A stretch of DNA of 64,000 nucleotides, from positions 558,001 to 622,000 of the forward strand of contig NZ_NPFY01000011.1 of assembly GCF_002259415.1 (NCBI RefSeq). The letters are read 5' to 3'. The notes under the pieces were generated by a model, which did not search any database, was not told the origin of the DNA, and worked only from the letters and a program-made list of their open reading frames with translations. Origin of the DNA: Rhodococcus sp. 14-2470-1b (lineage in GTDB: Bacteria > Actinomycetota > Actinomycetes > Mycobacteriales > Mycobacteriaceae). Position numbers and translations under genes: made by a program. Below, one piece after another: positions 1 through 29,093 of the stretch; positions within the stretch are counted from its first letter, which is position 1; the number at the start of each line of letters is the position of its first letter.

Positions 1-349
1 CCTGCTGAACGGCCGGTAGGTCGACGTCGTCGAAGGAGGCGCGCCAGGAGGCGTCGGGCACGCCGTCGACCAGGATGTTGCCTCCGTTGCTGGTGATGGC
101 GTACCGCCACGGTGCGCCGGGCAGATCGATCCTGTCGAACTGCTCGACGGTCCTCGTCGTCGTCGGGACAACGACTGCCTCGGAGGCCAGTTTCCGGAGT
201 AACTCCGTCGAGCGCATGCTCATGTAGGACAACGGCCCGCCGTCGTACATCTCGACGCAGGTGACCGAGGCGTCTATCGGAAAGCCCAGTGCTGCCGACG
301 AATAGATCATCGTTCGATCCAGGTCCACCGAGATCAGGGCAGTGCTCAC
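1..349 (-). CDS. HAD-superfamily hydrolase of the Ter locus (3' part cut off by the window edge)
   Basis: The first 116 codons are visible and the C-terminal part lies outside the window. The start is the GTG at 349-347, which overlaps the TGA of the upstream PRTase gene (GTGA), so the two are translationally coupled. Near the N-terminus the protein reads ISVDLDRTMIYSS; the DxDxT box is HAD motif I, with the nucleophile and acid/base aspartates. A Thr-rich stretch about 50 residues later (VVPTTTRTVEQF) fits the motif II region. HAD phosphatases in this position are known from actinobacterial Ter loci, where they are predicted to act on a nucleoside-like product. The substrate is unknown. The HAD family call is solid; the role is inference from context. 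Confidence 0.8.
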   Translation of the reverse strand, partial: MSTALISVDLDRTMIYSSAALGFPIDASVTCVEMYDGGPLSYMSMRSTELLRKLASEAVVVPTTTRTVEQFDRIDLPGAPWRYAITSNGGNILVDGVPDASWRASFDDVDLPAVQQ

Positions 350-2673
350 GTGACGTCCTTGATCAGTCCCATGCAGGAGTACGCGAGATCGGGAACTTCG
401 ACGACGGGCACCCCCCTCGCCTCGGCGAGCATCCGAATGTGCTTGTGCTCCGGAGCATTCGAATCACGTACCAGGACTCGCCAGGGAACGCGCCGCAGCA
501 GGACCCTTGTCGTCTCGCCCACTCCGGGCTTGACGAAGTTGACGTGCGAGATGCCGAATTCCTCACGCACCTTCTCCACCGACGCCCACCCGGTCCACGT
601 CGGCGTCCGATCCGACTCCCCGATCGTCGACGCCTCCGCGCTGGCCGCGTCGCGTACGTCGGCGAACTGTGCGGAGACGGTGTCGAGTAGGTGGTTGGAC
701 ACGTCGTCGGCGGCGAGTTCCGCGTAGTACTTGGCTCCGTGGAAGTCGCCGTCGCGGATGAGATCTGCGTTGAGGACGGTGCGTGAGACGAGGCCGGACA
801 CGGTCGAGTTGAGGCAGGCCGACGCGATGAGGAAGTCGTCCCTGGTGCCGTAGGTTCTCGCGCAGTGGCCGGGGTCGGCCAGTACGGCGAGGTCGTCGTC
901 GAAGTCGGCTCCGTCGAATTCGGCCAGTGCGGCCGAGAGTTCGCGCGCGATCGCGCCCTTGCCGGTCCAGCCGTCCACGAAGACGACCGAACGTGGGTCG
1001 TGGTGGTCGGAGAGGTATTTCAGTGCAACGGAGTCGATTCCGCGATCGCGCACGATCGACACGGCGTAGTGCGGGATCTCGATGCCGTGCATCTCGTGAG
1101 CCCAGCGACGCATCAGGATTCCGACCGGTGTGCCTGCGCGTGCAAGCGATGCGAGAACGATGTCGTGTCCCCGCTCGGCCAGTACGAGTTCGGTGACGGT
1201 GCCGACGGCAAGCGCCAATCGAGACGCGCTGTCGTGCAGCACTTCTTCGAACAGCTCGCGGTAGGCGGCATCGGGTTGGTACTCGACGGGCAACGATTCG
1301 GCGTAGTGGGCCGTACCTTCCTGGATCTTGCGCTCGCGTTCGGCGATGTCCGCTTCCAGCGAGATGTCGGAGAGGTCCTTCAGTAGCCACGTCACCTCGT
1401 TCGGTGCGTAGGACCCGAAGGCCGGTCCGGTCAGGGGTTCTGCCCGTCGGGACACGATGAGCCGCTGTGGGTCCGCACCACGGACCACGACGACCAGGAT
1501 GTCGGAACCGGATGCGGCCAGAACGTCGGCGACTCCGCCGGATGCGAACAGACGGTCGGTGTCCGCGGGTGCGTCGACGATCAGCACGATCTGTGCGTTC
1601 TTCGGCCCCGACGCGTTGTAGACGTACCGGTCCTGGGCTTCGCCGTCTTCCGGGGCGAGGAACTTGAACCCTCGGCGCAGGGGGTAGCTCGGCTCGTCGA
1701 GTACGTAGGCCGGCGATCGGGTGGTGGTCTGGAACAGTGCCGGATGGCCGCGGTCCGACAGTGCCGCTGCGACTTTCAGTGGCAGGTACATCAGTTCCTC
1801 GTGCCCGAGTACGACGACCGGCCGCCCGGGCTCGAGTGCCGATGCCACGGCGTCGGCGACCTCGGTGGTCGCAGTGAGGAACGACGCCGTGTCTCCGGCA
1901 CGGAAACCGTGACGGCCACCGTCCGGAACGGTCTCCGGCCAGTGTGCGGCGACTCGCGTGATGGTGCCTGCGTGGTCGGCGACGGGGTTGTACGCCGGTT
2001 CCGGCAACGCGACGACGGAGTCGATCAGGTTGTCCGCCAGCGCGACACGGCCCTGGGCGAGGCTGACCGAGTCGAGCGTGACTCCCAGTTCGTCGGCCAC
2101 GGCGGCGGATTCCGCGAGATGCTCGTCGGTGCGCATGTCCACGAGCGAGGCGATGACGTACCGGGTGCGTGGTGTCACGGCGTGGAGAGCTCGGACAGCG
2201 TCGAGTGCTGTTCTACCGGTCGATATCTCGTCGTCGACGAGAACGAGTGGCAGCTGTGGGTCGAGAACGCCCGGCGAGGTGGGCAACAGTTGGTGATCGG
2301 TGGCGTGGGAGTGGCCTTCCTGGAACTCGGCGTACACCCCGGTTCCCGGCACGTCTCGCCGCGTCGAGTGCAGGTAGCAGTGCGCGTTCAGGCGTGCGGC
2401 AACACAATGGCCGAGTCCAGTTGCGGTTTCCGCGAAACCGAGGACGTCGACGTCGGATCCGCCCACTGCTTCGAGAACCAGGTCTCCCAGTGCGTCGGCA
2501 GCACCGGTCACGACGGATGGATCGACCGGAATGTGTTTGCCGAGTACCTCCGACACCAGCAGGTGTGCTCGGCGGGGATTGCGCCGCAGTCCCGGTCGAA
2601 CGAGCTCCTCGATGGTCCAGTCCGACGAGGTGCTCGTGGTGGTCAGGTGTATTCCCGAGGTCGGGTCGGTCAT
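346..2673 (-). CDS. Ter-associated two-PRTase protein with C-terminal Pelota-like RNA-binding domain
   Basis: The 775-residue cytoplasmic protein has several parts. An N-terminal phosphoribosyltransferase-like domain (about 30-230) has a PRPP-loop motif VLVDDEISTGRT at 144-155. A middle region (about 260-430) corresponds to the TRSP-type extension. A second PRTase-like domain (about 480-660) has VVFVDGWTGKGA at 563-574. A C-terminal segment (about 715-770) resembles Pelota-type RNA-binding domains. Proteins of this design are known from Ter-linked operons and were proposed by Anantharaman, Iyer and Aravind to make a nucleoside-like metabolite; no reaction is proven from this sequence. Its ATG overlaps the stop of the upstream aldolase-like gene (ATGA) and its stop overlaps the GTG of the HAD gene, so the three genes form one tight operon. 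Confidence 0.85.
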   Translation of the reverse strand: MTDPTSGIHLTTTSTSSDWTIEELVRPGLRRNPRRAHLLVSEVLGKHIPVDPSVVTGAADALGDLVLEAVGGSDVDVLGFAETATGLGHCVAARLNAHCYLHSTRRDVPGTGVYAEFQEGHSHATDHQLLPTSPGVLDPQLPLVLVDDEISTGRTALDAVRALHAVTPRTRYVIASLVDMRTDEHLAESAAVADELGVTLDSVSLAQGRVALADNLIDSVVALPEPAYNPVADHAGTITRVAAHWPETVPDGGRHGFRAGDTASFLTATTEVADAVASALEPGRPVVVLGHEELMYLPLKVAAALSDRGHPALFQTTTRSPAYVLDEPSYPLRRGFKFLAPEDGEAQDRYVYNASGPKNAQIVLIVDAPADTDRLFASGGVADVLAASGSDILVVVVRGADPQRLIVSRRAEPLTGPAFGSYAPNEVTWLLKDLSDISLEADIAERERKIQEGTAHYAESLPVEYQPDAAYRELFEEVLHDSASRLALAVGTVTELVLAERGHDIVLASLARAGTPVGILMRRWAHEMHGIEIPHYAVSIVRDRGIDSVALKYLSDHHDPRSVVFVDGWTGKGAIARELSAALAEFDGADFDDDLAVLADPGHCARTYGTRDDFLIASACLNSTVSGLVSRTVLNADLIRDGDFHGAKYYAELAADDVSNHLLDTVSAQFADVRDAASAEASTIGESDRTPTWTGWASVEKVREEFGISHVNFVKPGVGETTRVLLRRVPWRVLVRDSNAPEHKHIRMLAEARGVPVVEVPDLAYSCMGLIKDVT

Positions 2674-3827
2674 CGTTCTGCTAGCTCTTTCAGTAGTTCG
2701 ACGAAGGTGATGCCCTCGTTGGTCACCCCGAACGCGCGGGCGCGCAGCAGGGTCTGATGCGCCCAGTTGCGGTGCGGGCCGAGCTCGTTCATCTTGTTTC
2801 CGTATCCGGACGCGCGCACACCGCCTGCGTCGGATTCCAGGATGTCGAGAGCGTCGTGGTATTCCTCGTGGGTGACAGCCGACAGCGCGTGCACCGCCGC
2901 TACGTGCGACGGATGGATGACGGTCTTTCCCTGAATTCCGTTGGCGCGGTCGAGGGCAACCTCGCGGAGCAGTGCGTCGAGGTCATGGCTGACGAGTTGG
3001 TGGCGGAAGCGCACGGCTTCCTGCTCGGCGAACGGTGTCTGGCGGAGCATGGGCCGGAACATGCGTTCGTGGTCGGCGAAGTACTCCCACACCGGTCCGG
3101 TGATGACGAACCCGGATTCGTTGCTCCGGCCCAGGTGGTTGACGATGGCGCTGATGACGTCGGCGACGACGCGGACGTCGTAGATGGTGAGGTCTCGGTC
3201 GCGGCGAATTCCGAACATTCCGCACATGTCGGTGGCTCCGATGCGCACGGCGAGGATCTGTTCTCGATGATCCTGCAGCAGAGCGCGGATCGCGACGAGC
3301 TCGGTATCGCGGGTTTCGCGGAACACCACCTCCGGTGACTCCAACACCGGCATCGAGAACAGACGCCGGCCGAGACGAGTGGAACCGCGAACGACCTCGT
3401 CGAGGAAGGCACCTCCTCGTGCGGCGGTGAACTTGGGAATCACGAACCCGGCCAACGCCGACGCGTCGGTGCGGAGCGAGGTGCAGATGCGTTCGATCTG
3501 CTGCGCGGTTCGTGCACGGACGAACACGAGCGAGCCGTGGACGTCGTCGGCGGCGAGGCCGTCGAGCGTCGCGACCGCGTTGTCGATCGCCTCTTCGAGG
3601 TTGTGATCGGCGACCGCGTCCTCGAGATCGATCACGAGCGAGCACACCCCCTCTGCACTGCGCTTGATCAACGTCTCGGTCAGGTCCGCGCGGGTCGCAG
3701 GCATGTAGAGGGTTGCTCCGAGACCGACGGCGACGAGGCCGAGATCGCCCGCGGTGTCGATCTTTTCCGGCGCGTGCAGGAACAGTCGATCCAGGACTGC
3801 CCCGTCGAGATGTCTGAAATGTTGCAC
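2670..3827 (-). CDS. HpcH/HpaI aldolase / citrate-lyase-beta-like TIM-barrel C-C bond lyase (Ter locus)
   Basis: The 385-residue soluble protein has features of the CitE/HpcH TIM-barrel family. YMPATR near residue 40 is followed by SLVIDLEDAV, whose Glu and Asp are the usual metal ligands, and RIGATDMCGMFG lies in the middle. It is the first gene of the leftward Ter operon and is coupled by ATGA to the PRTase gene. In the Ter literature this family is the C-C bond lyase subtype, predicted to cleave or make a small carbon skeleton that the PRTase and HAD proteins then use. The product is unknown. The start ATG at 3827 lies 30 bases downstream of the next leftward gene's stop, so that gene may be part of the same transcript. 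Confidence 0.85.
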   Translation of the reverse strand: MQHFRHLDGAVLDRLFLHAPEKIDTAGDLGLVAVGLGATLYMPATRADLTETLIKRSAEGVCSLVIDLEDAVADHNLEEAIDNAVATLDGLAADDVHGSLVFVRARTAQQIERICTSLRTDASALAGFVIPKFTAARGGAFLDEVVRGSTRLGRRLFSMPVLESPEVVFRETRDTELVAIRALLQDHREQILAVRIGATDMCGMFGIRRDRDLTIYDVRVVADVISAIVNHLGRSNESGFVITGPVWEYFADHERMFRPMLRQTPFAEQEAVRFRHQLVSHDLDALLREVALDRANGIQGKTVIHPSHVAAVHALSAVTHEEYHDALDILESDAGGVRASGYGNKMNELGPHRNWAHQTLLRARAFGVTNEGITFVELLKELAER

Positions 3828-3857
3828 CGAGATCCTTCGCAGGTAGTGACAGGTGAT

Positions 3858-5072
3858 CTAGCGAGCCGAGCCGCGCATTCGGTCGATCACCCCGGAGATG
3901 AAGCCGGAAATACTTCTCAGGTCCTGGAGGTAGGACCAGTAGTCGGGGTGTGTTCCTGTCAGCGTTGCGGTTGCACGGTCGATTCGAGCCAGCTGAGCAT
4001 CCAACACCGACCCCCATTCGGCAACCAGGGAACGATTGACGGCGAGCTGTTGTGCATCTCGTAACTTGAAGCGCACCGCGCGTTCTTCGCCTGTTGGGTC
4101 GAGTTTCACCTCGCGCAGCAGTTCCAGGCGTTCGGTGACGGCGTCGACCAGTTCCTCGGCGTCGGACAGGTGGCTACGCGCCTGGGCGATGTAGTCGAGC
4201 GCCTGCTCGGGGTTGGACGAGGAGAACGAGGCCCGGGCTGCGGACAGGTCCTCCTCGGCTTGCTCGATGTGCCGGGCGCTGTGCTGTTCGTTGTGCGACA
4301 GGTCCGCCGAGCTGGCGACATTGAACTCGCGGAGCAATGCGGAGAATGCGGGGGCGAGGCGGTCGAATCGGGTGCGAACCGCTTCGACTCTTGTTTTCAC
4401 CGACGTCAGCGCAGCCCTCGCCTCGGCGGTGCGCCCTGGTGCCGCGGCAACTGCGGATTCCAGCTCTTCGGCGGCTTCCCGTACCGCCGCCGCGGCGGTA
4501 CGGGCGCGCACGGCGTCGTTCGAACTCATTGCGGTGTCGAGGTCAGCGACCGCGGTGTCGACGGCGCGCCACGCCGAGCGAATCGAGGGGTAGTCGATGA
4601 ATGCAGGATCGGCCGATGCGACGGCCAGTTGGGCCTTCTCGGCCAGAGCTTTGGCGTCCTGAGCCAGTCGCGGTGTCGCGGCGAGCGCGGATCGTGCCTG
4701 CTCGAGGTCGTCGCGATGGGCCGCGTAGAACCGGTCGACGGCTTTGGCTGCCTCGCCCAGCAGGTGGGCGGCGTTCTGGAATGCCGCTTGGGCCGGCCCG
4801 GTCACGATGCCGTCGTACTGTTCCATCGCCGCGAGGTATGCCGCGCCTGCGTCGAAGCAGGCCTTCTCGGCCGGTGCCCACGCGGCGGTCGGATCCCGAT
4901 CGGGGTGCATCGAACGGACGGCGTCGACGCCGGACGACGCGATGGACTGGCGCTTGTCCATATCGAGAAAAGCAGCAACGGCCGTGCTCTGCGCCTGGGA
5001 TGCTCGAGTCTCGCGCGCACGCGGATCCGTCTCGCCCGAGCGGCGGAAGAGTCCAGGTCGGCGACTTGTCAC
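3858..5072 (-). CDS. Ala-rich helical (coiled-coil) protein of the Ter locus, function unknown
   Basis: The 404-residue protein has no signal peptide or membrane span. It is almost entirely Ala/Glu/Arg/Leu helix, with long heptad-like stretches between about residues 90 and 330. A conserved-looking tail, DYWSYLQDLRSISGFISGVIDRMRG, closes it (the last residues form an amphipathic helix). It lies head-to-head with terD, with a 137-base shared promoter region (5073-5209), and directly upstream of the aldolase-like gene. Its position suggests a structural or scaffold part of the Ter system. I do not recognise a named family. ATG at 5072 is the only good start. Confidence 0.75.
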   Translation of the reverse strand: MTSRRPGLFRRSGETDPRARETRASQAQSTAVAAFLDMDKRQSIASSGVDAVRSMHPDRDPTAAWAPAEKACFDAGAAYLAAMEQYDGIVTGPAQAAFQNAAHLLGEAAKAVDRFYAAHRDDLEQARSALAATPRLAQDAKALAEKAQLAVASADPAFIDYPSIRSAWRAVDTAVADLDTAMSSNDAVRARTAAAAVREAAEELESAVAAAPGRTAEARAALTSVKTRVEAVRTRFDRLAPAFSALLREFNVASSADLSHNEQHSARHIEQAEEDLSAARASFSSSNPEQALDYIAQARSHLSDAEELVDAVTERLELLREVKLDPTGEERAVRFKLRDAQQLAVNRSLVAEWGSVLDAQLARIDRATATLTGTHPDYWSYLQDLRSISGFISGVIDRMRGSAR

Positions 5073-5209
5073 CAGCCCGATAGTACTGACGGGAACTTCG
5101 CGGTGTGTGGTGCGCGTTAGCGTTGTGAACCGAAGACGAAAGTGACCAATCGGGCACGCGAGACACTACGGTGTTCCTCGGAAGGGGAACTCACGGCGAA
5201 AGGAAAGTC

Positions 5210-5785
5210 ATGGGCGTCAGCCTCAGCAAGGGCGGCAATGTCTCACTCACGAAGGCAGCTCCCAACCTGACCGCAGTCACGGTCGGCCTCGGATGGGACA
5301 TCCGGTCGACGACCGGAACGGACTTCGACCTCGACGCCAGCGCCATCGCGCTCGGTGCCGACAAGAAGGCTCTCAGCGATCAGCATTTCGTGTTCTTCAA
5401 CAACCTGAAGTCCCCCGACGGTTCCATCGAGCACACCGGTGACAACACCACCGGTGAAGGCGATGGCGACGACGAGCAGATCAAGGTGGACCTCGCCGCT
5501 GTGCCGCCGAACGTCGACACGATCACCTTCCCCGTGTCGATCTACGACGCCGACGCACGCTCGCAGTCGTTCGGTCAGGTTCGCAACGCGTTCATCCGCG
5601 TGATCAACCAGGCCGACCAGTCCGAGCTGGCCCGCTACGACCTGAGCGAGGACGCGTCGACGGAAACGGCCATGGTGTTCGGTGAGCTCTACCGCAACGG
5701 TGCAGAGTGGAAGTTCCGCGCAGTGGGCCAGGGATACGCGTCCGGCCTCGCCGGAATCGCCCGCGATTTCGGAGTAAATGTGTAG
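5210..5785 (+). CDS. terD: TerD-family calcium-binding stress protein
   Basis: The 191-residue TerD/CABP protein begins [15 protein letters not shown], the standard family N-terminus. This fixes the start at 5210, after the ribosome binding site AAAGGAAAG, rather than at in-frame codons 13 residues upstream. The family signatures [29 protein letters not shown] and FPVSIYDA are all present. The acidic residues in DFDLD and GDGDDE are the calcium ligands known from TerD structures. It is cytosolic, possibly membrane-associated through TerC. It belongs to the rightward arm of the locus with terC; a hairpin terminator lies between the two, so terC may need read-through or its own promoter. Confidence 0.95.
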
Positions 5786-5810
5786 TAAAGCCCAGGTCAA
5801 GATTGGGACT

Positions 5811-5843
5811 ACCCCGCCTCTTCCTTCATGATTGAGGCGGGGT
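5811..5843 (+). terminator. Intrinsic-terminator-like hairpin between terD and terC
   Basis: A perfect 10-bp stem (ACCCCGCCTC at 5811-5820 with GAGGCGGGGT at 5834-5843) closes a 13-base loop, 26 bases after the terD stop. It is followed by TTGTCGTG, a weak T-run, so termination may be partial and set the terD:terC ratio. Confidence 0.7.
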
Positions 5844-5910
5844 TTGTCGTGTTTGCACACAGCCCGGTTCGTCCCAATACCTGCGCCGGCTACAGAAAGG
5901 CCACACGCCC

Positions 5911-7008
5911 GTGGTTCTACGCATCTTCGGTTGGTCCATAGGCGTCACCATCGTCTCGGTGATCGTCGCCTTCCTCTACGGCGGCTGGCAGGCACTGTTC
6001 CTGGTGCTGATCCTCGGCGTTCTCGAGGTGTCGCTGTCCTTCGACAACGCGGTCATCAACGCCACCGTCCTTCGCCGCATGAGCGAGTTCTGGCAGAAGA
6101 TCTTCCTCACCATCGGCATCATCATCGCTGTCTTCGGTATGCGCTTGCTGTTCCCGCTGGTCATCGTCTGGGCCGCGTCGGGTCTCGGCCCCGTCGCCGC
6201 CATCGATCTCGCCCTCAACCCGCCGCCGAACGACGCCGCGTACTTCGACGACGGCCGACCCAGCTACGAGACACTCCTGACCGACGCGCATCCACAGATC
6301 GCGGCGTTCGGCGGCATGTTCCTGCTGATGCTGTTCCTCGGCTTCATCTTCGAGGACCGCGAGATCACCTGGCTCAGCTGGCTCGAGAAGCCTCTCGCGA
6401 AGATCGGCAGGCTCGATCAGCTGTCCGTCGTCGTCGCCAGCATCATTCTCGTCCTGACGGCCGAGTTCCTCGCCGAGGACGAGAAGATCTCCACGGTCAT
6501 GGTTGCCGGTGTGCTCGGCATGATCACCTACATCGCCGTCAACGGCCTCGGCGAGTTGTTCCACGTCGAGGAAGAGGGCGAGGAGGGCTCGGGCGGACCG
6601 AGTGAGCTTGCCAAGGCAACCGGCAAGGCCGGCTTCTTCCTGTTCCTCTACCTCGAGGTCCTCGACGCGTCGTTCTCGTTCGACGGCGTCATCGGCGCGT
6701 TCGCCATCACCGCGGACCCGATCATCATCGCTCTGGGCCTCGGCTTCATCGGCGCGATGTTCGTTCGGTCGATCACGGTGTTCCTGGTGCGCAAGGGAAC
6801 GCTCAGCGACTACGTATACCTGGAGCACGGTGCACACTGGGCAATCGGTGCACTGGCGATCATCCTGATGGTCTCCATCGGCGTGCACATCAACGAGATC
6901 GTCACCGGGTTGGTCGGTGTGTTCTTCATCGGTGCAGCATTCATCAGTTCAGTGATGAGGAACCGAAAGCTCGAAGCCGCAGGCACCGACACACACCTGC
7001 ACGTGTAG
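5911..7008 (+). CDS. terC: TerC-family integral membrane protein
   Basis: The 365-residue protein has about nine hydrophobic segments. It carries the family's duplicated acidic motif within membrane segments: GVLEVSLSFDNAVINA near residue 35 and LEVLDASFSFDGVIGAFA near 250. An acidic cytosolic loop (HVEEEGEEGSGG) lies near residue 215. TerC proteins are thought to be metal-ion (Mn-type) transporters or membrane anchors for TerD complexes. The GTG at 5911 follows GAAAGG with a 10-base gap and starts directly before the first helix. It ends 3 bases before the convergent LuxR-type gene, so no terminator is visible between them. Confidence 0.93.
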   Translation: MVLRIFGWSIGVTIVSVIVAFLYGGWQALFLVLILGVLEVSLSFDNAVINATVLRRMSEFWQKIFLTIGIIIAVFGMRLLFPLVIVWAASGLGPVAAIDLALNPPPNDAAYFDDGRPSYETLLTDAHPQIAAFGGMFLLMLFLGFIFEDREITWLSWLEKPLAKIGRLDQLSVVVASIILVLTAEFLAEDEKISTVMVAGVLGMITYIAVNGLGELFHVEEEGEEGSGGPSELAKATGKAGFFLFLYLEVLDASFSFDGVIGAFAITADPIIIALGLGFIGAMFVRSITVFLVRKGTLSDYVYLEHGAHWAIGALAIILMVSIGVHINEIVTGLVGVFFIGAAFISSVMRNRKLEAAGTDTHLHV

Positions 7009-7011
7009 TCC

Positions 7012-7314
7012 TCACCAATCGTCGAGCTTCGTATGGCCGTCCTGTAGCGCACGCGCGAACAGGGCGGCCTTCGTCGGTGCAGGCCTGCCCACGGCGGAGT
7101 ACTTCTGACGAATCCGGGTCAGGTGAGTGTTGATGGTTCCCACGGAGATGTGGACGGATGCGGCCGCGACGGTTTTCGAGTCCGACGCGAACCAGGCGAT
7201 CATCACTTCCACTTCCCGCGCGCTGAGCGGTGGTCTGCGATACACGTGCTTACTACGTTCTCCGATCGGTGAAACGGACGTCGGTGGTTGCGTACGCATC
7301 GGTGCAACGAACAC
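7012..7314 (-). CDS. Small LuxR/GerE-type HTH protein
   Basis: The 100-residue protein is little more than a LuxR-type helix-turn-helix: PLSAREVEVMIAWFASDSK, then VGTINTHLTRIRQKY as the recognition helix region, then GRPAPTKAALFARALQDG. No receiver domain is present. It closely resembles the HTH of the genes at 11317 and 11885, including the unusual tail of the form GR-A-TKA-L-ARALQDG. All three flank the STAND/WD40 gene. The start used is GTG 7314, after a GGGGGT stretch; ATG 7299 is an alternative. It is probably a DNA-binding regulator of the neighbouring genes. The signal is unknown. Confidence 0.75.
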   Translation of the reverse strand: MFVAPMRTQPPTSVSPIGERSKHVYRRPPLSAREVEVMIAWFASDSKTVAAASVHISVGTINTHLTRIRQKYSAVGRPAPTKAALFARALQDGHTKLDDW

Positions 7315-7487
7315 GGAAAATTACCCCCAGACGAGAAGAATCCCGGACTTGAAAAACCATCGATGACGCCCGACCGCCGTGGTCCGATCCTGTAGCCGGA
7401 ACGGCGGTCTGGCCAGTCCAACCAGGGGGTCCGTACAGGTCAATACACCGGAACCCGCTTCGACCACCGTAAAACCGACCGTTCGCT

Positions 7488-7500
7488 TATAGTTCCGCCA
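7488..7500 (+). promoter_or_regulatory. Probable leaderless promoter of the STAND/WD40 gene
   Basis: TATAGT at 7488-7493 is a near-consensus -10 box, and the ATG at 7500 lies exactly 6 bases after it. That places the expected transcription start at the A of the start codon. No Shine-Dalgarno sequence precedes the ATG, which agrees with leaderless translation. No convincing -35 box is seen. Confidence 0.6.
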
Positions 7501-10500
7501 TGACAGCGGTGCAGCCCGATCCCCGCACCATCACCACCAAGGCCGAACTGACCGCAGGCCTGCGCTCGGTGCGGGAGAACTCGGGCAAGACGTATCGAGA
7601 ACTGGTGAAGCTGTCCGGTGCCCTCCACGGCACCATCAGCGGATGGTTCTCCGGCCAACACCTTCCGATGGACGCCAGCGCCGACATGTTCGACAGGGTC
7701 CTCCGCGAGTGCGGCGTCGGCGACGCGGACGAACGCGCTCTGTGGTGGGACGCCGTCGTCCGGGTGCGACCCGCGTCGGGCAAGCGCCCCGACCGCAGCC
7801 GGGCGCCGTACAAGGGCCTCGAATCGTTCGAGGCGTCGGACGCGGAATGGTTCTTCGGGCGGTCCGACGTCGTCGCCGAGCTCAGCGAGAAGGTACGTCG
7901 CGTCGCCGACGACGGGGGCGGGGTCGTCTTCGTCCTCGGGGCGTCGGGATCGGGTAAGTCGTCGGTACTGCGGGCGGGCTTGGCGGCATCGCTCGGCGGC
8001 GCCGGGGTGAACGGTGCTCGGGTGCACACGGGACTGTCCGGCATCGAAGCCTGGGTGGCGACGGCAACCACGAGTTTCGATCCGACGGACCGAACGGACG
8101 GCAGTGTCGTGGTCCTTGACCAGGTCGAGGAGTTGTGGACGCTCGCCGGCTCGGATCGGCGGCACGCCGTTCTGGCTGCGGTGCAGCTGAAGGTTGTGGC
8201 GGGTGCCGTCGTCGTGATGGGTCTGCGCGCCGACTTCTATCAGAACGCGGTGGCCGAGGACGTCCTGAGGCTCGGCCTCGTCGACAATCCGATCGTGCTC
8301 GGTCGCCTTCGTCCGGACCAGCTGCGTGACGCCATCGTCGAGCCCGCGCGCAAGGCCGGAATCGGCGTCGACGACGCACTGCTTCGGACCTTGTTGTCCG
8401 AGATGGAGCCGTCGGGCACGGTGTTCGCCCACGATCAGGGTGCACTCCCGATGCTGTCGCACGCACTGCTCGCGACGTGGTCGACCGCGACGGGTCCGAC
8501 GATGACCGTCGACGACTACTTCTCCACCGGCGGGATACCGGGGGCTGTCGGCCAGTCCGCCGAGGCCGTCTACTCGTCCCTCGACCCGGCTCAGCAGAAC
8601 GCCGCCGCCCTGGTCTTCGTGCGATTGGTCAACATCGAGGACGACGTCCTGACGCGTCGACGCGTGGACAGCGGTGAACTTCTCCGCGGGGAAGGCACCG
8701 ACGCCGACGTCGACGTGGTGGTGGAGCGTTTCGCAGCGGCGCGTCTGCTCACCGTCGAGGAGGACTCGGTATCGGTGACACACGAGGTACTGCTGACGGC
8801 ATGGGATCGGCTTCGCCGGTGGATCGACGGTGACCGGCAGTGGCATCTGGTGCATCGGCGCCTCACCGACGCTGCGGTGCTGTGGGATCACAGTGGGCGC
8901 GATTCGACGGTGCTTCTGCCCGCGAGTCGCCTCGATGCCCTGCACGATTCGCTCGCCGAGGGCGATCGGGAGGGCGACCTCAACGTCGTCGAACGGGACT
9001 ATCTCGCCGCGAGCGAGAGGCGAGTCGATCACACCGAGTCTCAGCGGCGCCGGCGTCGGAGAGTGCTCGAGGTGTTGACGGCGGCGCTGGCAGTGCTGAC
9101 GGTCGTGGCGGTGGTGTCGGCGGTGGTCGCGTTCTCGGCGAGCAGCGATGCCGACGACAGGCGTGTCGAGGCCGAAGCAGCGTTGGCGGGTCAGTTGGCG
9201 GGCTCGGCCGAGCGGTTCCGCACGCTCGACCCGGGCCTGTCGGTGCATCTGGCACTTGCCGCGTACGAGATCGATCCGGCGACGGCGGCGAGATCGGCGC
9301 TGCTCGACGCGTCCGCGGTGCATGCTCCCGTCCGGCTTCCCGGCGTATCGGGCGAGACCGTTGCCCGAGTCGATTCCACCGGTCAGATTCTCGCCGCTGC
9401 GGGCGCCGACGGTACGGTCCGGTTGTGGTCGCTCGGTGCACCGGCTCGGGCTCGCGGGACCATCGATGTCGGGGAACCGGGCAGCGCGCTCACCGTCGAG
9501 TTCGCGCCGACGAGCCGGACTCTCGCGGTATCGGGTGCGTCGGGAACAAGCCTGTGGGACATCGCCGACGTCGATTCGCCGGTGCTCCTGTCAGCCGTCG
9601 GCGACGAGGCGACGACGGCGAAATCGATGGCATTCGCTCCCGACGGATCGTCGTTGGCCCTGGTGTCCGGCGACGGTGCCGTCTCGGTGTGGAACGTGGC
9701 CGACCCGGCGGCGCCCACTCTCGCCGTCGTTCCGGCGACGTCGGTCCCGGTGAATGCCGTGGCGTTCTCGCCCGACGGAACGGCGCTGGTCACGGCGGGC
9801 AAGGCTCGTGGGTTGCAGGTGTGGGAGATGCCGGCGCTGACCACGACGTCCTTCGAGATTCCGTCGGACGGCGGCACCTACGACTACCTGTCGGTGACGT
9901 ACTCCCCGGACGGTCGCACGATCGCTGCAGGAACGACAGGTCGAGACGTGGCGCGTTGGACCGTCGAACCCGGTGGTCGCCTCGCCGGACAGACACCGCT
10001 GACCGGCTTCACCAGTTACGTCAACGACGTGGCATTCGACGGCACCGGATCGGAACTCGCCGCCGTCAGTTCCGACAACTCGATCAAGACGTGGGACGCC
10101 GCGACGGGTGTTCTACGTGAAACATTGCCGGGATCGACGGTGGTCATGTCGGTCGACTACGCACCGGACGATTCCGCTCTGATCACGGCGGGGCAGGACG
10201 GGGTCACCCGCGTGTGGCCGCTGCCGGGACCGGTGATGCCAGGACAGACCGACACGGTCTTCATCAACCCGACGGACGGCAGCGGAACACGAGTCCTCGC
10301 CGGCGTCGGTTCGCGCGGCGACGGCCTCAGGCTGTGGGATGTCACAGATCCGGACCGACCGATCGTGTCCGAGCGCCCGCTGTCCCCGACCACCGGCGAC
10401 CCGCTGACGGGTGCGGCGGCACTGTCGTGGGACGGATCGTTGGCCGCAGGCGGCACATCGTCGGGAGCGTTCCAACTGTGGGACGTCCGGGCGCCGCAGA

Positions 10501-11273
10501 ATCCGATTCCGCTCGGCACCCCGCACGCCGCCGTCGACTCGCTCGTAGGCGTGTTGGTCTTCACCCGTACCGGTGATCTGCTGGCCGTGTCCCCGCAGAA
10601 CACACCTGACGTCGAACTCTGGGACGTTCGCGATCCGTCACGGCCCACACGGCTGTCCGGCTTCGACGTCGGCAAAAATCCGCAGGTCATGGCCTTCAGT
10701 CCGGACGGACGAACTCTGGCTGTTCCGACGCTGAACGACGAAGTCGAACTGTGGAACGTCAGCGACCCGGCGGCCCCGGTCAAGGTGTCGACCGTCGCGG
10801 GCTTCTCCGGCGACGCGCAAGCAACAGCGTTCTCACCCGACGGGCGAATGCTCGCCGCGGGCAGTGCGGACCACACGCTCCGGCTGTGGGACGTCGCCGA
10901 TCCGACGACCCCGCGCCACGTCGCCCAGATCGTCGGTCCGCGGGAGGCGGTGTATTCGGTGGCGTTCGATCCGAGTGGCACCAGACTCGTTGCAGGCGTC
11001 GACGGTCAGTCGATGTGGATGTGGGACATCTCCGACCCGTTCGATCCGACGACGTTCGCCACGCTGACCGCCTACGGCAACCGCGTCAACGACGCCGTGT
11101 TCACCGCCGGCGGCGCCGCAGTGATCGGCGGTGGACCGGAGAAGGACCTACGAGTGTGGCGGACCGATCCCGAGGACGTGGTCGAAAGGATCTGCGCCGG
11201 TGGAGGATCGACGATCACCCGGGAGGAATGGGATCAGTATCTCCCGGGATCGCCGTTCCGGGAGCTGTGCTGA
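7500..11273 (+). CDS. HTH - STAND-type ATPase - TM - WD40 repeat protein (signal-receptor-like)
   Basis: The 1257-residue multidomain protein starts with an XRE-like HTH (about 10-80: YRELVKLSGALHGTISGWFSG). A linker reading APYKGLESFEASDAEWFFGR is the hallmark entry to the nSTAND1-type ATPase. Walker A GASGSGKSS lies near 147-155 and Walker B VVVLDQVEELW near 203-213. An Arg-rich stop-transfer and one hydrophobic span lie near 512-545. The rest (about 590-1240) is WD40 beta-propeller with roughly a dozen blades of the form FSPDG...LWDV. The HTH-ATPase half should be cytosolic and the propeller outside if the span is a true TM. Known STAND proteins oligomerise on ligand binding in signalling or conflict systems. 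The ligand and DNA target are unknown. LuxR-type genes lie on both sides. Confidence 0.85.
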   Translation: MTAVQPDPRTITTKAELTAGLRSVRENSGKTYRELVKLSGALHGTISGWFSGQHLPMDASADMFDRVLRECGVGDADERALWWDAVVRVRPASGKRPDRSRAPYKGLESFEASDAEWFFGRSDVVAELSEKVRRVADDGGGVVFVLGASGSGKSSVLRAGLAASLGGAGVNGARVHTGLSGIEAWVATATTSFDPTDRTDGSVVVLDQVEELWTLAGSDRRHAVLAAVQLKVVAGAVVVMGLRADFYQNAVAEDVLRLGLVDNPIVLGRLRPDQLRDAIVEPARKAGIGVDDALLRTLLSEMEPSGTVFAHDQGALPMLSHALLATWSTATGPTMTVDDYFSTGGIPGAVGQSAEAVYSSLDPAQQNAAALVFVRLVNIEDDVLTRRRVDSGELLRGEGTDADVDVVVERFAAARLLTVEEDSVSVTHEVLLTAWDRLRRWIDGDRQWHLVHRRLTDAAVLWDHSGRDSTVLLPASRLDALHDSLAEGDREGDLNVVERDYLAASERRVDHTESQRRRRRRVLEVLTAALAVLTVVAVVSAVVAFSASSDADDRRVEAEAALAGQLAGSAERFRTLDPGLSVHLALAAYEIDPATAARSALLDASAVHAPVRLPGVSGETVARVDSTGQILAAAGADGTVRLWSLGAPARARGTIDVGEPGSALTVEFAPTSRTLAVSGASGTSLWDIADVDSPVLLSAVGDEATTAKSMAFAPDGSSLALVSGDGAVSVWNVADPAAPTLAVVPATSVPVNAVAFSPDGTALVTAGKARGLQVWEMPALTTTSFEIPSDGGTYDYLSVTYSPDGRTIAAGTTGRDVARWTVEPGGRLAGQTPLTGFTSYVNDVAFDGTGSELAAVSSDNSIKTWDAATGVLRETLPGSTVVMSVDYAPDDSALITAGQDGVTRVWPLPGPVMPGQTDTVFINPTDGSGTRVLAGVGSRGDGLRLWDVTDPDRPIVSERPLSPTTGDPLTGAAALSWDGSLAAGGTSSGAFQLWDVRAPQNPIPLGTPHAAVDSLVGVLVFTRTGDLLAVSPQNTPDVELWDVRDPSRPTRLSGFDVGKNPQVMAFSPDGRTLAVPTLNDEVELWNVSDPAAPVKVSTVAGFSGDAQATAFSPDGRMLAAGSADHTLRLWDVADPTTPRHVAQIVGPREAVYSVAFDPSGTRLVAGVDGQSMWMWDISDPFDPTTFATLTAYGNRVNDAVFTAGGAAVIGGGPEKDLRVWRTDPEDVVERICAGGGSTITREEWDQYLPGSPFRELC

Positions 11274-11300
11274 TTCGTGAGCTGTGCTGATTCGTGAGCT
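11262..11300 (+). repeat. 17-bp tandem duplication across the stop codon of the WD40 gene
   Basis: The unit GAGCTGTGCTGATTCGT occurs at 11262-11278 and 11279-11295, followed by five more matching bases. The first copy contains the gene's TGA stop, so the duplication adds only 3' noncoding sequence. It looks like slipped-strand duplication. Confidence 0.85.
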
Positions 11301-11316
11301 CGGCAGACGGTGGGCG

Positions 11317-11715
11317 TCAGAGATCGGCGATGTCGATCAGGCCGTCCTGCAGGGCACGGGCAACGAGTGACGCCTTGGTGGACGCAGTACGGCCGACAGC
11401 GGCGTACTTCGCGCGAATACGAGTGAGATGAGTGTTGACGGTTCCCAGCGACAGGAACAGCGACTTCGCGACCTCGACCTTGGAGTCGCACTTGATCCAG
11501 CCGGTGAGCACCTCGATCTCGCGCTGGGTGAGCATGGGCCGAGGGAGAAACGGTCCGGTTGCGCGCGATCCGCCGGTCGGAGGCAGCTGGATGGGCGGTG
11601 GGACGAGAGACATGGTCCGTCGCGGGACTGCGGTGCCGAGCCCGCTGCCCGTACTCGAGGCCGAAGCGTCGAAGGCTGAAGCGTCGAAAGCTGAGGCGTC
11701 GATGCTGACTGTCAT
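11317..11715 (-). CDS. LuxR/GerE-type HTH protein with N-terminal Asp-Ala-Ser repeats
   Basis: The 132-residue protein starts at ATG 11715 after a strong GGGGAG site 8 bases upstream; an upstream in-frame start would add 14 residues without a better ribosome site. Residues 4-20 are a low-complexity run (IDASAFDASAFDASAS) encoded by a 15-bp repeat. A proline-rich linker follows. The C-terminal 70 residues form a LuxR-type HTH (LTQREIEVLTGWIKCDSK, then LGTVNTHLTRIRAKY). It shares the VGRTASTKASLVARALQDG tail with the small HTH protein at 7012. It lacks a receiver or ligand domain. It converges with the STAND/WD40 gene and is probably a local regulator. Confidence 0.75.
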   Translation of the reverse strand: MTVSIDASAFDASAFDASASSTGSGLGTAVPRRTMSLVPPPIQLPPTGGSRATGPFLPRPMLTQREIEVLTGWIKCDSKVEVAKSLFLSLGTVNTHLTRIRAKYAAVGRTASTKASLVARALQDGLIDIADL

Positions 11716-11884
11716 GTGAATTCTCCCCGAGGTTCCAGCGGTTGTGGTCTGGCACAACCATTCGCGTAAATGATCTTCACAGTTGACTGCCAGGTTTGTC
11801 TGCCCTGAAAACTAGGGGCATTGAAACGACAACCATGTACACGGCGTGCACTGTGACCGAGATGACGCACAGGCGCGGTGGCCG

Positions 11885-12670
11885 TCAATTCTGGTTCGGT
11901 GGCTCCGGCATCGGGAGCCAGCCGTCTTCGACCGCCCGCTTGTAGAGATCGGTCTTGGTCGGTGCGGGCCTGCCTGCCTCGGCGTACTTGTTTCGGATAC
12001 GCACGAGGTAGTCGTTGACCGTCTGCTCGGACAACCCGGCCAGCCGGGCGACGCGAGCAGCTTTCTCCCCGGACGCGTACAGCGCCAAGACTTCGCGTTG
12101 GCGTGGGCTGAGTCCGACGTCGGGAAGATGCGGATCGCCGTCGATGGCCGCGGCCCAATCGGTCGTGACCACCTGGCCGCCCGCCGCTGCCCGGCGAATG
12201 GCCGACACGATCGCGGCGGCGGGTTCCGACTTACGGACGACGCCGAGCACGCCCGCCCTCGCAGCGGAGCGTACGAGGAACGGGTTCTCGGCACCGGTGT
12301 AGACGAGGACCTGCACGCCGACGGAGTGCAGCTTCTCGACGTTGGACCTCGGTGAGGAACCGTCGCCCAGCCGAAGATCGAGGACGACGAGATCCAGCCG
12401 CTGGCCGAGTCCGACGAGCTCGTCGACGGTGGTGGTCACGGCGACGAGCTCGAGATTGGCTTCGCCGGACAGAATCGCGCGGAGACCGACCGCGACGGAC
12501 TCGTGATCCTCGACCAGGCCGATCCGTCGGCGAGCTGTCGTGGTGTCGCGCACTGTGTCGGCGACCATCGACGTCGGCGCTGATTGCTGTACTGCCACTG
12601 GCTGCGTCGCTGTCGACGGCCGCGTCTCTGCCGCGATGTGCGGTGTCGTCGCCCCCGGAACCACTGTCAT
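11885..12670 (-). CDS. NarL/FixJ-type response regulator (REC-LuxR HTH)
   Basis: The 261-residue protein has a disordered N-terminal extension of about 45 residues, unusual for the family. A receiver domain (about 48-165) follows with acidic E54/D55, phosphoacceptor D98 in VVLDLRLGDG, T125 and K147. The C-terminal LuxR HTH (about 185-250) ends GRPAPTKTDLYKRAVEDGW, the same tail type as the two small HTH neighbours. No histidine kinase gene lies in this cluster, so it is an orphan regulator here. Start ATG 12670 follows GAGGTGGGG. A role with the STAND/WD40 protein is inference from position and shared HTH type. Confidence 0.85.
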   Translation of the reverse strand: MTVVPGATTPHIAAETRPSTATQPVAVQQSAPTSMVADTVRDTTTARRRIGLVEDHESVAVGLRAILSGEANLELVAVTTTVDELVGLGQRLDLVVLDLRLGDGSSPRSNVEKLHSVGVQVLVYTGAENPFLVRSAARAGVLGVVRKSEPAAAIVSAIRRAAAGGQVVTTDWAAAIDGDPHLPDVGLSPRQREVLALYASGEKAARVARLAGLSEQTVNDYLVRIRNKYAEAGRPAPTKTDLYKRAVEDGWLPMPEPPNQN

Positions 12671-12786
12671 TGCCCCACCTCTGATGTTTCAACCGAGGTG
12701 AACTCGGCTGCCTGAGTCGAATGTCGAACAACGCGACCGGTTCGTTACGTCAGTGGTGTGGAACGGGGAGAAGTCAGGGAGCTCGG

Positions 12787-14208
12787 TCAGGGAGCAGCGG
12801 ATGTCGACGTCGTCGACGAGGCGGGAACGTCGGGCGCCGGGACGTCGCTGCCGGAACGGGACGCATCGAAGCGCGGCCGCGCTCGCGCGAACACGAAGAA
12901 CGCAACGACCAGCAGTACGGCGCGACCCCACACACCGAATTCGACGAAGAATTCCTCGGTGCCTGCATCGGTGCCCTGGGCGAGCGCGGCAAAGTATCGG
13001 AAGACGCCGATGCCCATCGACAGATCGGCCACCAGGTAGGCGGCGACCAGAGCCCACGGGACCCGGAGCAGTACGAAGAACGGGATGAGCCACAACGTGT
13101 ACTGAGGCGAATGGACCTTGTGGAGCAGCAGAAATCCGCACAGCATCGATCCGCTGACAGCCACCCACGGATACACGTGCTCGGTACTCGCGCGTCGCAC
13201 ACCGATCCACAGCGCAAGACCGAACGCCGCGAACACCAGAAGGGGCGACAGGATGTCGACGGTGTTCTGGAACGCGGTCTCGGCTTGCTCGTGACTTTCC
13301 GCCGTCATCGCGTCGGTCACCCACAGTTGCCGCAGACCCCAGTACCAGATCGAGTTCGTGGTGATGTCGGCTTGTCGCAGACTCTGGAACGCGAACGAGG
13401 CCTTCCAGCCCTCGTATCCGAGGACCGCGAAGGGAAGGTTGACGACGACGACGGTCGCTGCCGCGGCGGCCAGCACGGACAGCGCGCCGCGGATGTCCAG
13501 CTTGGTTCCAGGCACTCGGCCCGTCGCACCGCCGTACGCGACGTAGGCGGCGAGCGGGAGAACGAAGGCGCCTGGGTACAGCTTGAGACAGAAACCCACT
13601 CCCAGCAGTACCGCCGCGAGAACAGCCTTCACCCGCAACGACATCCGCATGCTCATCACGAACACTGCGCCGACGGCCGTCGCGACCACCGGCAGTTCCC
13701 AGTTGTGGAACGCGTACATGATCAACGGCGGACCCACCGACCACAGCAATGCGGACTTCCCCGCCAGTCGGCCCAGCATCCACGCCGTGATCAGCCCGAA
13801 CGGCGCGAGAAGCAGAGCCGTGTAGAGCAGGAACTCGGCGTCGGTGTGGGCCGGTACTGCGCCGAGCCACATCAACACCCCGCTCAGCACGGGGTACTCG
13901 ACCGTTCCACCCGTCAACACTCCGTTGGAGGTGATCGCACCGTGAAGGTAGGGGAACACGTGGTTGTCGATGTCGCGGCCGAGCCACAGGAACTGAATGT
14001 CCGAGTAGCAGACCCAACTGTCCTTGACGGCGTCGAACGTCGTGCTCCGGCCGTTGTCGTAGAACGGCGCCACGGCACATCTGGCCTTGTTGAGGTAGCC
14101 GAGAATCAACGTCAGCGCACAGGACGCGACCAGGACGATCATCGTCGACGTCGACGCGGCGGCCGATGGCAGGCGACGCCCACGAGACGACCGTCCACCT
14201 GGATGCAT
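12787..14208 (-). CDS. GT87-type (GT-C) polytopic glycosyltransferase
   Basis: The 473-residue membrane protein has about ten to twelve hydrophobic spans. Soon after the first TM comes the actinobacterial GT-C signature region CYSDIQFLWLGRDID...FPY and later VEYPVLSG. The acidic residue in the first extracytoplasmic loop (SDIQ) is the likely catalytic base in this class, which uses polyprenyl-phosphate sugars. It looks related to the GT87/DUF2029 protein next to rpsF in Mycobacterium tuberculosis (Rv0051), but here it is on the strand opposite rpsF. The C-terminus is a hydrophilic Ser/Pro/Ala tail. The sugar and acceptor are unknown; a role in cell-envelope mannan or glycolipid is a guess from the family. 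Confidence 0.8.
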   Translation of the reverse strand: MHPGGRSSRGRRLPSAAASTSTMIVLVASCALTLILGYLNKARCAVAPFYDNGRSTTFDAVKDSWVCYSDIQFLWLGRDIDNHVFPYLHGAITSNGVLTGGTVEYPVLSGVLMWLGAVPAHTDAEFLLYTALLLAPFGLITAWMLGRLAGKSALLWSVGPPLIMYAFHNWELPVVATAVGAVFVMSMRMSLRVKAVLAAVLLGVGFCLKLYPGAFVLPLAAYVAYGGATGRVPGTKLDIRGALSVLAAAAATVVVVNLPFAVLGYEGWKASFAFQSLRQADITTNSIWYWGLRQLWVTDAMTAESHEQAETAFQNTVDILSPLLVFAAFGLALWIGVRRASTEHVYPWVAVSGSMLCGFLLLHKVHSPQYTLWLIPFFVLLRVPWALVAAYLVADLSMGIGVFRYFAALAQGTDAGTEEFFVEFGVWGRAVLLVVAFFVFARARPRFDASRSGSDVPAPDVPASSTTSTSAAP

Positions 14209-28960: not shown

Positions 28961-29093
28961 CCTTCGGTGGGGCGGGAGTGGAGCCTGCGGAATGACCTTC
29001 GGTGCGGCGGGAGTGGAGCCTGCGGAATGACCTTCGGTGGGGCGGGAGTGGAGCCTGCGGAATGACCTTCGGTGAAGCGGGAGTGGAGGATGA
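28958..29093 (+). repeat. 35-bp tandem repeat array (about four copies)
   Basis: The copies start at 28958, 28993, 29028 and 29063. Each begins TGACCTTCGGTG and continues through GCGGGAGTGGAG to CTGCGGAA; the fourth diverges after 28 bases. There are no spacers. The array sits between the stop of the exported protein and the start of the next gene. Confidence 0.95.

What the first reader, a model, noticed from the sequence alone, without database searches (positions are those of the whole stretch)
7012..12670. HTH-STAND-TM-WD40 receptor surrounded by three related LuxR-type regulators
The large protein joins an HTH, STAND ATPase, one TM and a WD40 propeller, so it could carry signals across the membrane to DNA. 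Two tiny LuxR HTH proteins and one receiver-LuxR protein flank it. All three share the same unusual C-terminal signature (GR-A-TK..LxxRAxxDG). This looks like a multi-part sensory module that I cannot match to a named system.
Basis: partly seen in the sequence, partly recalled or inferred. Interest (0 to 1): 0.72.

Follow-up and report, generated by a model that had tools for sequence, protein, structure and literature searches.

The report
Membrane STAND switch with mini-LuxR partner
In one family of actinobacteria, a membrane-anchored NLR-like switch protein, where present, is nearly always encoded next to a tiny DNA-binding protein, and the gap between them often carries a dedicated control site, so the two genes look like one conserved signalling module whose trigger is unknown.

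Summary
The described genes are there: HTH-nSTAND1-TM-WD40 (7500-11273 +), two LuxR-HTH-only proteins (7012-7314 -, 11317-11715 -) and a receiver-LuxR protein (11885-12670 -), all three with the stated signature. The four are not one unit. The WD40 gene and the first mini-LuxR are: a mini-LuxR lies beside 65 of 69 orthologous WD40 genes examined (15 of 18 genera; 61 divergent, 4 co-directional), beside 0 of 12 paralogues, and near 0 of 80 relatives from a named-genome scan. Their gap carries a tandem repeat, GTCCRTAC-N2-4-GTCMRTAC (window 7429-7446), found in 20 of 25 chosen genomes with the pair and 0 of 5 without; 21 of 22 sites lie in this gap. The second mini-LuxR and the receiver protein form another unit, present without the WD40 gene, with their own single-copy element (11799-11825 -, 29 of 37 genomes). 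Best reading: a membrane STAND switch whose expression is set by a dedicated GerE-like regulator at one local site. Which protein binds the site, the signal and the output are inferred. Parts are known kinds; nine paper searches showed no description of the pairing. New variant of a known kind.

The parts
7012..7314 (-). mini-LuxR 1 (P0002, 100 aa): LuxR/GerE DNA-binding domain with no sensor domain; conserved partner of the WD40 gene
   Evidence: GerE 28.4 bits; predicted fold closest to B. subtilis GerE 1fse, TM 0.89 on the target, Foldseek E 0.027, no match at E 0.001 or better; a mini-LuxR beside 65 of 69 orthologues
7429..7446 (+). tandem direct-repeat element GTCCGTAC-AG-GTCAATAC in the divergent gap (candidate operator)
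   Evidence: only match in the window, 4 of 100 shuffles had one with up to 2 mismatches (the pattern was drawn from this site); one site per copy of the locus in this genome (2 in all, because the contig holds the locus twice), reversed control 0; conserved in alignments
7488..7493 (+). TATAGT, -10-like hexamer 6 nt before the ATG of the WD40 gene (suggests a leaderless mRNA; inference)
   Evidence: sequence; the same hexamer in most of the genus loci shown (not in L018 and L034)
7500..11273 (+). HTH-nSTAND1-TM-WD40 protein (P0001, 1257 aa)
7548..7742 (+). N-terminal HTH_31 domain
   Evidence: Pfam 29.4 bits; 49% mean pairwise identity among 17 orthologues, the highest of the four regions compared
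7806..8906 (+). nSTAND1 NTPase with Walker A GASGSGKSS and Walker B region
   Evidence: 307 bits; invariant columns; predicted fold matches Cdc6/Orc1, CED-4 and Apaf-1 at low TM-scores
9072..9128 (+). transmembrane segment, N side inside (prediction)
   Evidence: a hydrophobic middle segment in 80 of 81 proteins, more K/R on the N side in 75 (the 81 include 12 paralogues)
9300..11219 (+). WD40 region, about 14 repeats, predicted outside the membrane
   Evidence: Pfam WD40, motif list, few gaps among 17 orthologues (0.8%)
11317..11715 (-). mini-LuxR 2 (P0003, 132 aa from ATG 11715); belongs to the separate P0003-P0004 unit
   Evidence: GerE 38.1 bits; beside or near the receiver gene with no WD40 gene in place at 13 of 13 loci examined; start
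11799..11825 (-). second conserved element TTCAATGCCCC-N9-GGGCAGA upstream of P0003
   Evidence: 29 of 37 genomes of the genus, one site each (two here because the contig holds the locus twice), each upstream of the P0003-type gene by the places; reversed control 0 of 37
11885..12670 (-). receiver-LuxR response regulator (P0004, 261 aa); core gene of the genus
   Evidence: Response_reg 32.1 bits, GerE 32.0 bits; match in 37 of 37 genomes

Best explanation
The heart of the finding is a two-gene, one-site module. One gene makes a membrane-anchored STAND switch: HTH and NTPase in the cytoplasm, one membrane helix, a WD40 sensor outside. The other makes a GerE-like DNA-binding protein with no sensor of its own. 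This mini-LuxR binds a tandem direct repeat (GTCCRTAC twice, 10-12 bp apart, about one helical turn) in the gap and controls its own gene and the switch gene. The STAND protein then senses an envelope signal and acts through its HTH, most simply at or near the same promoter, closing a feedback loop. Shown: domain make-up, predicted topology, conserved pairing, the repeat and its near-uniqueness in the genomes searched. Inferred: who binds the repeat, direction of control, signal, downstream targets. P0003 and P0004 are a neighbouring, separable unit (two-component regulator plus a second mini-LuxR with its own element).
For: Pairing: a mini-LuxR beside 65 of 69 orthologous loci in 15 of 18 genera, 61 divergent and 4 co-directional; 0 of 12 paralogue loci; 0 of 80 loci of the named-genome scan. 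The four co-directional partners fall outside the clade that holds 56 of 60 upstream mini-LuxRs (98/82; only 75 columns), so the partner seems to have been recruited more than once. The pair is kept in several different surroundings. Repeat: strict shuffle test passed in 40 of 61 divergent loci, 3 of 4 co-directional, 1 of 4 without an adjacent partner, 0 of 12 paralogues. Whole-genome pattern in 30 genomes chosen by me: present in 20 of the 25 with the pair, 0 of the 5 without; 22 sites, 21 of them at this gap, reversed control 0 in all 30 (the odd site lies within a predicted coding gene). In the loci that pass, its orientation relative to the mini-LuxR is the same in divergent and co-directional arrangements. 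In two genomes of genus g20 (one identified as Lolliginicoccus) the WD40 gene has neither partner nor repeat, while a mini-LuxR elsewhere has the repeat in front of it (score 14 of 16). Switch: Walker residues invariant in 17 orthologues; STAND fold; HTH as well conserved as the NTPase.
Against: G063 has a repeat (one letter off the pattern) at its WD40 gene but no mini-LuxR found in the 20 kb around it. Six genomes keep P0002 after loss of the WD40 gene, yet the repeat is not found in front of it by pattern; by eye a degenerate form remains in three of the four read. 21 of 61 divergent loci fail the strict shuffle test: 14 narrowly (score 13 of 16) and 7 clearly (L057, L073-L075, L082, L085, L096). 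For L073-L075, L082 and L096 repeats are visible by eye, so the scan window or the letter scheme may be at fault. Five of 25 genomes with the pair have no exact pattern match. The pattern was drawn from some of the loci it was then counted in. The distance of the repeat from the WD40 start varies, so activation and repression cannot be told apart. No binding data.
Confidence: 0.58

Rival explanations
1. The repeat is bound by the N-terminal HTH of the STAND protein itself (autoregulation), and the mini-LuxR is a partner with another site.
For: The HTH is the best conserved region (49%, NTPase 48%). G063 has the repeat at the WD40 gene without an adjacent mini-LuxR. In six genomes that lost the WD40 gene but keep P0002 the repeat is not found by pattern.
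Against: In genus g20 (G080, G096) the repeat stands before a stand-alone mini-LuxR and not before the WD40 gene. G198's WD40 gene has no adjacent mini-LuxR and no repeat. Orientation is fixed relative to the mini-LuxR, not to the WD40 gene.
Confidence: 0.17
2. It is an NLR-like defence system: the STAND protein senses an invader and the mini-LuxR only sets its expression.
For: nSTAND1 was named in conflict systems (PMC8195603, passages seen); the fold matches Apaf-1 and CED-4.
Against: No effector domain seen: Pfam shows HTH, nSTAND1 and WD40-type models (the best 25 of 44 families were displayed). PADLOC gives weak partial matches only, to ATPase parts for P0001 and to the HTH part of CARF proteins for the LuxR proteins. 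The WD40 part has few gaps and 35% mean identity among 17 orthologues, not the hypervariability expected of an arms race. One full-length copy per genome in the genus, near rpsF-ssb-rplI in several genera.
Confidence: 0.15
3. The four genes form one sensory module.
For: All four kinds lie together in the window and in one other genus (G110, L190), at the same rpsF place.
Against: P0003-P0004 persist without the WD40 gene, lie apart from it in one clade, have their own element, and the receiver gene has a kinase-like gene beside it in three genomes.
Confidence: 0.07
4. Neighbourhood inherited by descent with no functional link.
For: The genes share an old position beside rpsF-ssb-rplI in several genera; the 65 loci are related and not independent.
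Against: The pair is kept after relocation and orientation change and with partners from different mini-LuxR branches; a conserved repeat in the gap.
Confidence: 0.03

Closest known systems
GerE of Bacillus subtilis and other single-domain LuxR proteins
   Same: A LuxR DNA-binding domain and nothing else; best structural match of mini-LuxR (1fse, TM 0.89 on the target; Foldseek E 0.027, so fold-level support only). Single-domain LuxR proteins are counted in many actinobacteria in PMC3466318 (passages seen)
   Different: 22% identity to GerE in the structural alignment; GerE is a sporulation regulator without a STAND partner (recalled)
MalT and LAL regulators (STAND NTPase fused to a LuxR HTH; recalled)
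   Same: STAND NTPase working with a LuxR-type DNA-binding domain
   Different: Here the LuxR domain is a separate small protein; the STAND protein has an HTH_31 domain, a membrane segment and WD40 repeats
Apaf-1 and CED-4 (STAND switches; Apaf-1 with WD40 propellers, recalled)
   Same: Same NTPase fold; NTPase followed by WD40, as in Apaf-1
   Different: HTH in place of CARD, and a membrane segment between NTPase and WD40
ToxR/CadC membrane-tethered transcription regulators (recalled)
   Same: Cytoplasmic HTH, one membrane helix, outside sensor (predicted)
   Different: Large NTPase switch between HTH and membrane; WD40 sensor; HTH of another family
nSTAND1 proteins of conflict systems (PMC8195603, passages read)
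   Same: Same NTPase clade by Pfam model
   Different: No effector domain seen here; conserved mini-LuxR partner and repeat

Membership tests
nSTAND1 STAND NTPases | Pfam nSTAND1 match over the whole profile | tested here: met
   307 bits, profile 1-378 of 379
nSTAND1 STAND NTPases | conserved Walker A and B residues | tested here: met
   G147, G152, K153, S154, D207, E210, E211 invariant in 17 orthologues
nSTAND1 STAND NTPases | STAND fold | tested here: met
   predicted model matches Cdc6/Orc1, CED-4, Apaf-1 at E about 1e-5; TM-scores over the whole chain are low (0.2-0.35)
Single-domain LuxR/GerE regulators | GerE domain and no other domain | tested here: met
Single-domain LuxR/GerE regulators | sequence-specific DNA binding | not testable with these tools
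   the site is inferred from conservation only
MalT/LAL regulators | STAND NTPase and LuxR HTH in one polypeptide | tested here: not met
   the fused HTH is HTH_31; the LuxR domain is a separate gene
NLR-like anti-phage systems (Avs type) | effector domain in the STAND protein | tested here: not met
   none seen in Pfam, NCBIfam or PADLOC scans; Pfam table cut at 25 of 44 families
NLR-like anti-phage systems (Avs type) | protection against phage | not testable with these tools
   none
Membrane-tethered transcription regulators (ToxR/CadC type) | N-terminal HTH inside, one TM, sensor outside | tested here: met
   by prediction only: hydropathy and positive-inside count, HTH_31
Membrane-tethered transcription regulators (ToxR/CadC type) | HTH binds a target promoter | not testable with these tools
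   none
Two-component system (P0004) | receiver domain | tested here: met
   Response_reg 32.1 bits, cut-off 30.2
Two-component system (P0004) | cognate kinase gene adjacent | tested here: not met
   none beside it in the window; adjacent HATPase-like genes in G011, G198, G110; a relative of the G011 kinase lies elsewhere in the own genome (44% identity)

The most novel reading that the evidence does not exclude
A split STAND transcription switch: an extracytoplasmic WD40 ligand drives NTP-dependent assembly of a membrane STAND protein whose HTH joins, at a single local operator, a GerE-like protein that supplies in trans the LuxR domain that MalT-type regulators carry in cis. A mini-LuxR of the same family also lies beside TetR-like plus NACHT-like ATPase genes, so mini-LuxRs may be general partners of STAND NTPases in this family of bacteria.
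Probability: 0.22. Interest if true: 0.72.

Novelty: new variant of a known kind. Interest (0 to 1): 0.5.

Why it matters
Relatives that match this protein from HTH to WD40 occur in many actinobacteria, yet the papers I searched gave no described output for the architecture. A conserved partner and a near-unique candidate operator give a direct handle: one binding assay and one reporter fusion would tell how such switches connect to transcription, and whether NLR-like NTPases can act as envelope sensors rather than as defence.

Tried and rejected
Four-gene module: rejected as a unit. Defence system: no effector, no useful PADLOC match, kept as a rival. One shared operator for all mini-LuxRs: not supported; the scan found no site at the start of the P0003-type or C16-type genes in the loci tried (L014, L097-L100, L102-L105 and others), though some sites of score 13-14 lie elsewhere in those loci. 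Repeat as the -35 box of the mini-LuxR: considered, since the reverse strand reads TTGACC in this genus, but other genera have GTCCRTAC at that place. Known structured RNA at the locus: no Rfam match at E 1 or better in window 6900-12900. Plasmid-borne module: the 18 plasmid records matching P0001 at E 1e-60 are all Streptomyces and none covers 80%. Papers: nine full-text searches; passages seen of PMC8195603, PMC7159879 and PMC3466318; PMC10907252 seen as search listing and start of abstract only. The passages seen do not describe this pairing or repeat; preprints and most subscription papers are not in that library. The mini-LuxR model used for the counts was built from genus sequences, so distant forms could be missed. 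Gene predictions come from a simple codon-usage script of my own. The P0001 step failed, so only its LuxR part is used.
Full report
What is there. The window holds, between a DUF475 membrane gene (5911-7008 +) and a mannosyltransferase-like gene (12787-14208 -; best Pfam match just below its cut-off) followed by rpsF, ssb and rplI (14372 on; names recalled from the sequences), four regulatory genes: mini-LuxR 1 (P0002, 7012-7314 -), the large protein (P0001, 7500-11273 +), mini-LuxR 2 (P0003, 11317-11715 - after correction of the start) and a receiver-LuxR protein (P0004, 11885-12670 -). Domain calls are: HTH_31 (29.4 bits on the N-terminal fragment), nSTAND1 (307 bits), WD40; GerE in all three regulators. 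The shared C-terminal pattern occurs three times in six frames of the window, once in each regulator. The predicted fold of residues 1-572 matches Cdc6/Orc1, CED-4 and Apaf-1 at E about 1e-5 with low TM-scores; the predicted fold of P0002 is closest to GerE (E 0.027, TM 0.89 on the target, no match at E 0.001).

The genome. The window lies in an unnamed 5.9 Mb genome (G000). The genus has 37 held genomes of 4.0-6.4 Mb; from recall of genome sizes I think it is Rhodococcoides (Rhodococcus fascians group), but no call names it. The contig carries a perfect inverted duplication of about 74 kb per arm: one search saw it at 100% over the stretch fetched, and the rest follows from the two places of the window on the contig. 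This looks like an assembly fold-back; it makes features here appear twice in own-genome searches and does not affect the finding.

Pairing. In the genus a full-length P0001 match is in 21 of 37 genomes (a 22nd, G015, has only a partial WD40 match and is not counted), and a mini-LuxR lies upstream of it, divergent, in 21 of 21. At family level 68 of 201 sampled genomes have a match at E 1e-90 (some are genus members again). I examined 81 loci: 69 orthologues (460 bits or more to P0001) and 12 lower-scoring paralogues (347-434 bits). Six partial or broken places listed (G100, G062, G213, G049 twice, one in G092) and the duplicate copy in G000 were left out. A mini-LuxR (HMM score over 80 bits) is beside 65 of 69 orthologues, 61 divergent and 4 co-directional; 9 of these have another one convergent downstream; 0 of 12 paralogues have one. 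By the genus labels the 65 lie in 15 genera and the four exceptions (L047, L048, L053, L062) in three others. In one of the 65 (L085) the WD40 gene is split into two frames. In the named-genome scan 0 of 80 loci have a mini-LuxR in the flanks held (up to 6 kb a side, shorter in some); two weak LuxR matches (13.9 and 23.5 bits) lie about 2.7 and 4.8 kb away in longer reading frames. That scan includes one member of the family, Lolliginicoccus lacisalsi (L112), whose contig length equals that of G080 C3. In a class-wide sample the mini-LuxR model hits 16 of 296 genomes at E 1e-20, ten of them in this family; several of these hits lie in reading frames of 230-660 aa and need not be mini-LuxRs, and only 16 candidates per genome were scored.

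History. In five genomes outside the window's clade (G110, G115, G191, G133, G002) the WD40 gene sits near the rpsF-ssb-rplI place; in others the pair sits in different surroundings. In G110 the order is mini-LuxR, WD40 gene, mini-LuxR, two genes, receiver-LuxR, mannosyltransferase, rpsF, so the four-gene grouping looks ancestral. Of the 16 genus genomes without a full-length WD40 gene I looked at the locus in 12: six (G020, G021, G028, G029, G032, G034) keep a P0002-type gene there, six do not. In the tree of mini-LuxR domains (75 columns, many forks unresolved) 56 of 60 upstream partners fall in one clade (98/82), together with P0002 copies from genomes that lost the WD40 gene and one downstream copy; the four co-directional partners fall outside it. 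This suggests repeated recruitment, with the caution that so short an alignment demands.

Repeat in the gap. Alignments of the divergent gap show GTCCRTAC..GTCAATAC in the two main clades of the genus and TCCGAAC repeats in the third. With spacing 9-13 allowed and a criterion of at most 2 of 100 mononucleotide shuffles reaching the score, it is found in 40 of 61 divergent loci, 3 of 4 co-directional, 1 of 4 without an adjacent partner and 0 of 12 paralogues; spacings found are 10 (7), 11 (27) and 12 (10). Of the 21 divergent loci that fail, 14 have score 13 (3-8 shuffles reach it) and 7 fail clearly. Whole-genome search with GTCCRTACN{2,4}GTCMRTAC in 30 genomes gave 22 sites in 20 genomes and 0 for the reversed pattern. 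I chose the 30: 25 have the pair (20 with a site, 5 without an exact one: G024, G009, G133, G037, G067) and 5 do not (G010, G015, G063, G198, G080; none with a site). 21 of 22 sites are at the WD40/mini-LuxR gap (two of them the duplicated copies in G000); one, in G149, lies within a predicted coding gene.

Who binds it. For the mini-LuxR: in the loci that pass, the repeat keeps its orientation relative to the mini-LuxR when the WD40 gene is turned round, and in G080 and G096 it stands before a mini-LuxR that is away from the WD40 gene, while the WD40 gene has none. Against: G063 has it at the WD40 gene with no mini-LuxR in the 20 kb fetched (its nearest relative, 58% identical to P0002, lies by rpsF), and in six genomes that lost the WD40 gene but keep P0002 the repeat is not found by pattern in front of P0002; of four of these read by eye, three show a degenerate form and one none. 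I give the mini-LuxR the better odds.

The second unit. P0004-like proteins are in 37 of 37 genomes. At 13 of 13 loci examined without a WD40 gene in place, a P0003-type mini-LuxR lies beside or within about 2.5 kb of the receiver gene; these loci were fetched around earlier P0003 and P0004 matches, so the count is of adjacency, not of presence. Upstream of P0003 stands TTCAATGCCCC-N9-GGGCAGA: 29 of 37 genomes (up to 1 mismatch), one site each (two in G000 because of the duplication), all just upstream of the P0003-type match, and 0 for the reversed pattern. Beside the receiver gene a HATPase-type protein is encoded in G011, G198 and G110 (L227, L238, L190; the G110 match is just below the Pfam cut-off). 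None is there in the window, but the own genome has a relative elsewhere (44%). So P0004 is most simply the regulator of a two-component system, and the second element a candidate site for P0004 or P0003.

Mini-LuxR and other STAND proteins. The copy at C16:43026 of the own genome (L014) lies beside a TetR-like gene followed by a NACHT-like ATPase gene (NACHT 28.1 bits, cut-off 26.7); the same order occurs in L099 and L103, where the NACHT match is below the cut-off; in L098 the TetR-like gene is there without the ATPase (TetR was confirmed by Pfam in L103 only).

Mechanism. Shown: the architecture, the predicted topology, the pairing, the repeat. Inferred: WD40 outside binds an envelope ligand; the STAND domain changes state; the HTH acts on DNA; the mini-LuxR sets expression at the repeat. 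Among 17 orthologues the HTH and the NTPase are equally conserved (49% and 48% mean pairwise identity), the WD40 part less (35%) but with few gaps. That fits a fixed receptor better than an arms-race sensor.

Verdict. The pairing and the repeat are, as far as nine paper searches and passages of three papers show, undescribed; the parts are of known kinds.

Noticed in passing
window 1-12632 and beyond; contig C1 of G000, centre near 548817: The contig carries a perfect inverted duplication with arms of about 74 kb reaching the contig end; probably an assembly fold-back.
   Followed up: partly
window 11799-11825 (- strand): A conserved element TTCAATGCCCC-N9-GGGCAGA upstream of P0003, one per genome in 29 of 37 genomes of the genus (two in the own, duplicated contig), no Rfam match; candidate operator of P0004 or P0003.
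   Followed up: yes
L014 7024-10380; L099; L103: Another mini-LuxR beside a TetR-like gene and a NACHT-like ATPase gene: a second association of this small family with a STAND-type NTPase.
   Followed up: partly
L227 4277-6507; L238 8880-11083; L190 12190-14504: P0004-type receiver genes beside a HATPase-type kinase gene and a gene with no Pfam match; both missing beside P0004 in the window.
   Followed up: partly
L085 (G163): The WD40 gene is split into two open frames; assembly error or a real frame change not resolved.
   Followed up: no
window 28958-29088: A short tandem repeat with a period of about 35 bases, seen in a self-comparison.
   Followed up: no
window 3858-7008: A TerD-like gene (name by sequence resemblance, recalled) and a DUF475/TerC gene stand next to the module; the same neighbours recur at this locus in the genus genomes.
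   Followed up: no
L217-L222: Six genomes have lost the WD40 gene but keep an intact P0002 reading frame, which suggests P0002 has work beyond the WD40 gene or that the loss is recent.
   Followed up: partly
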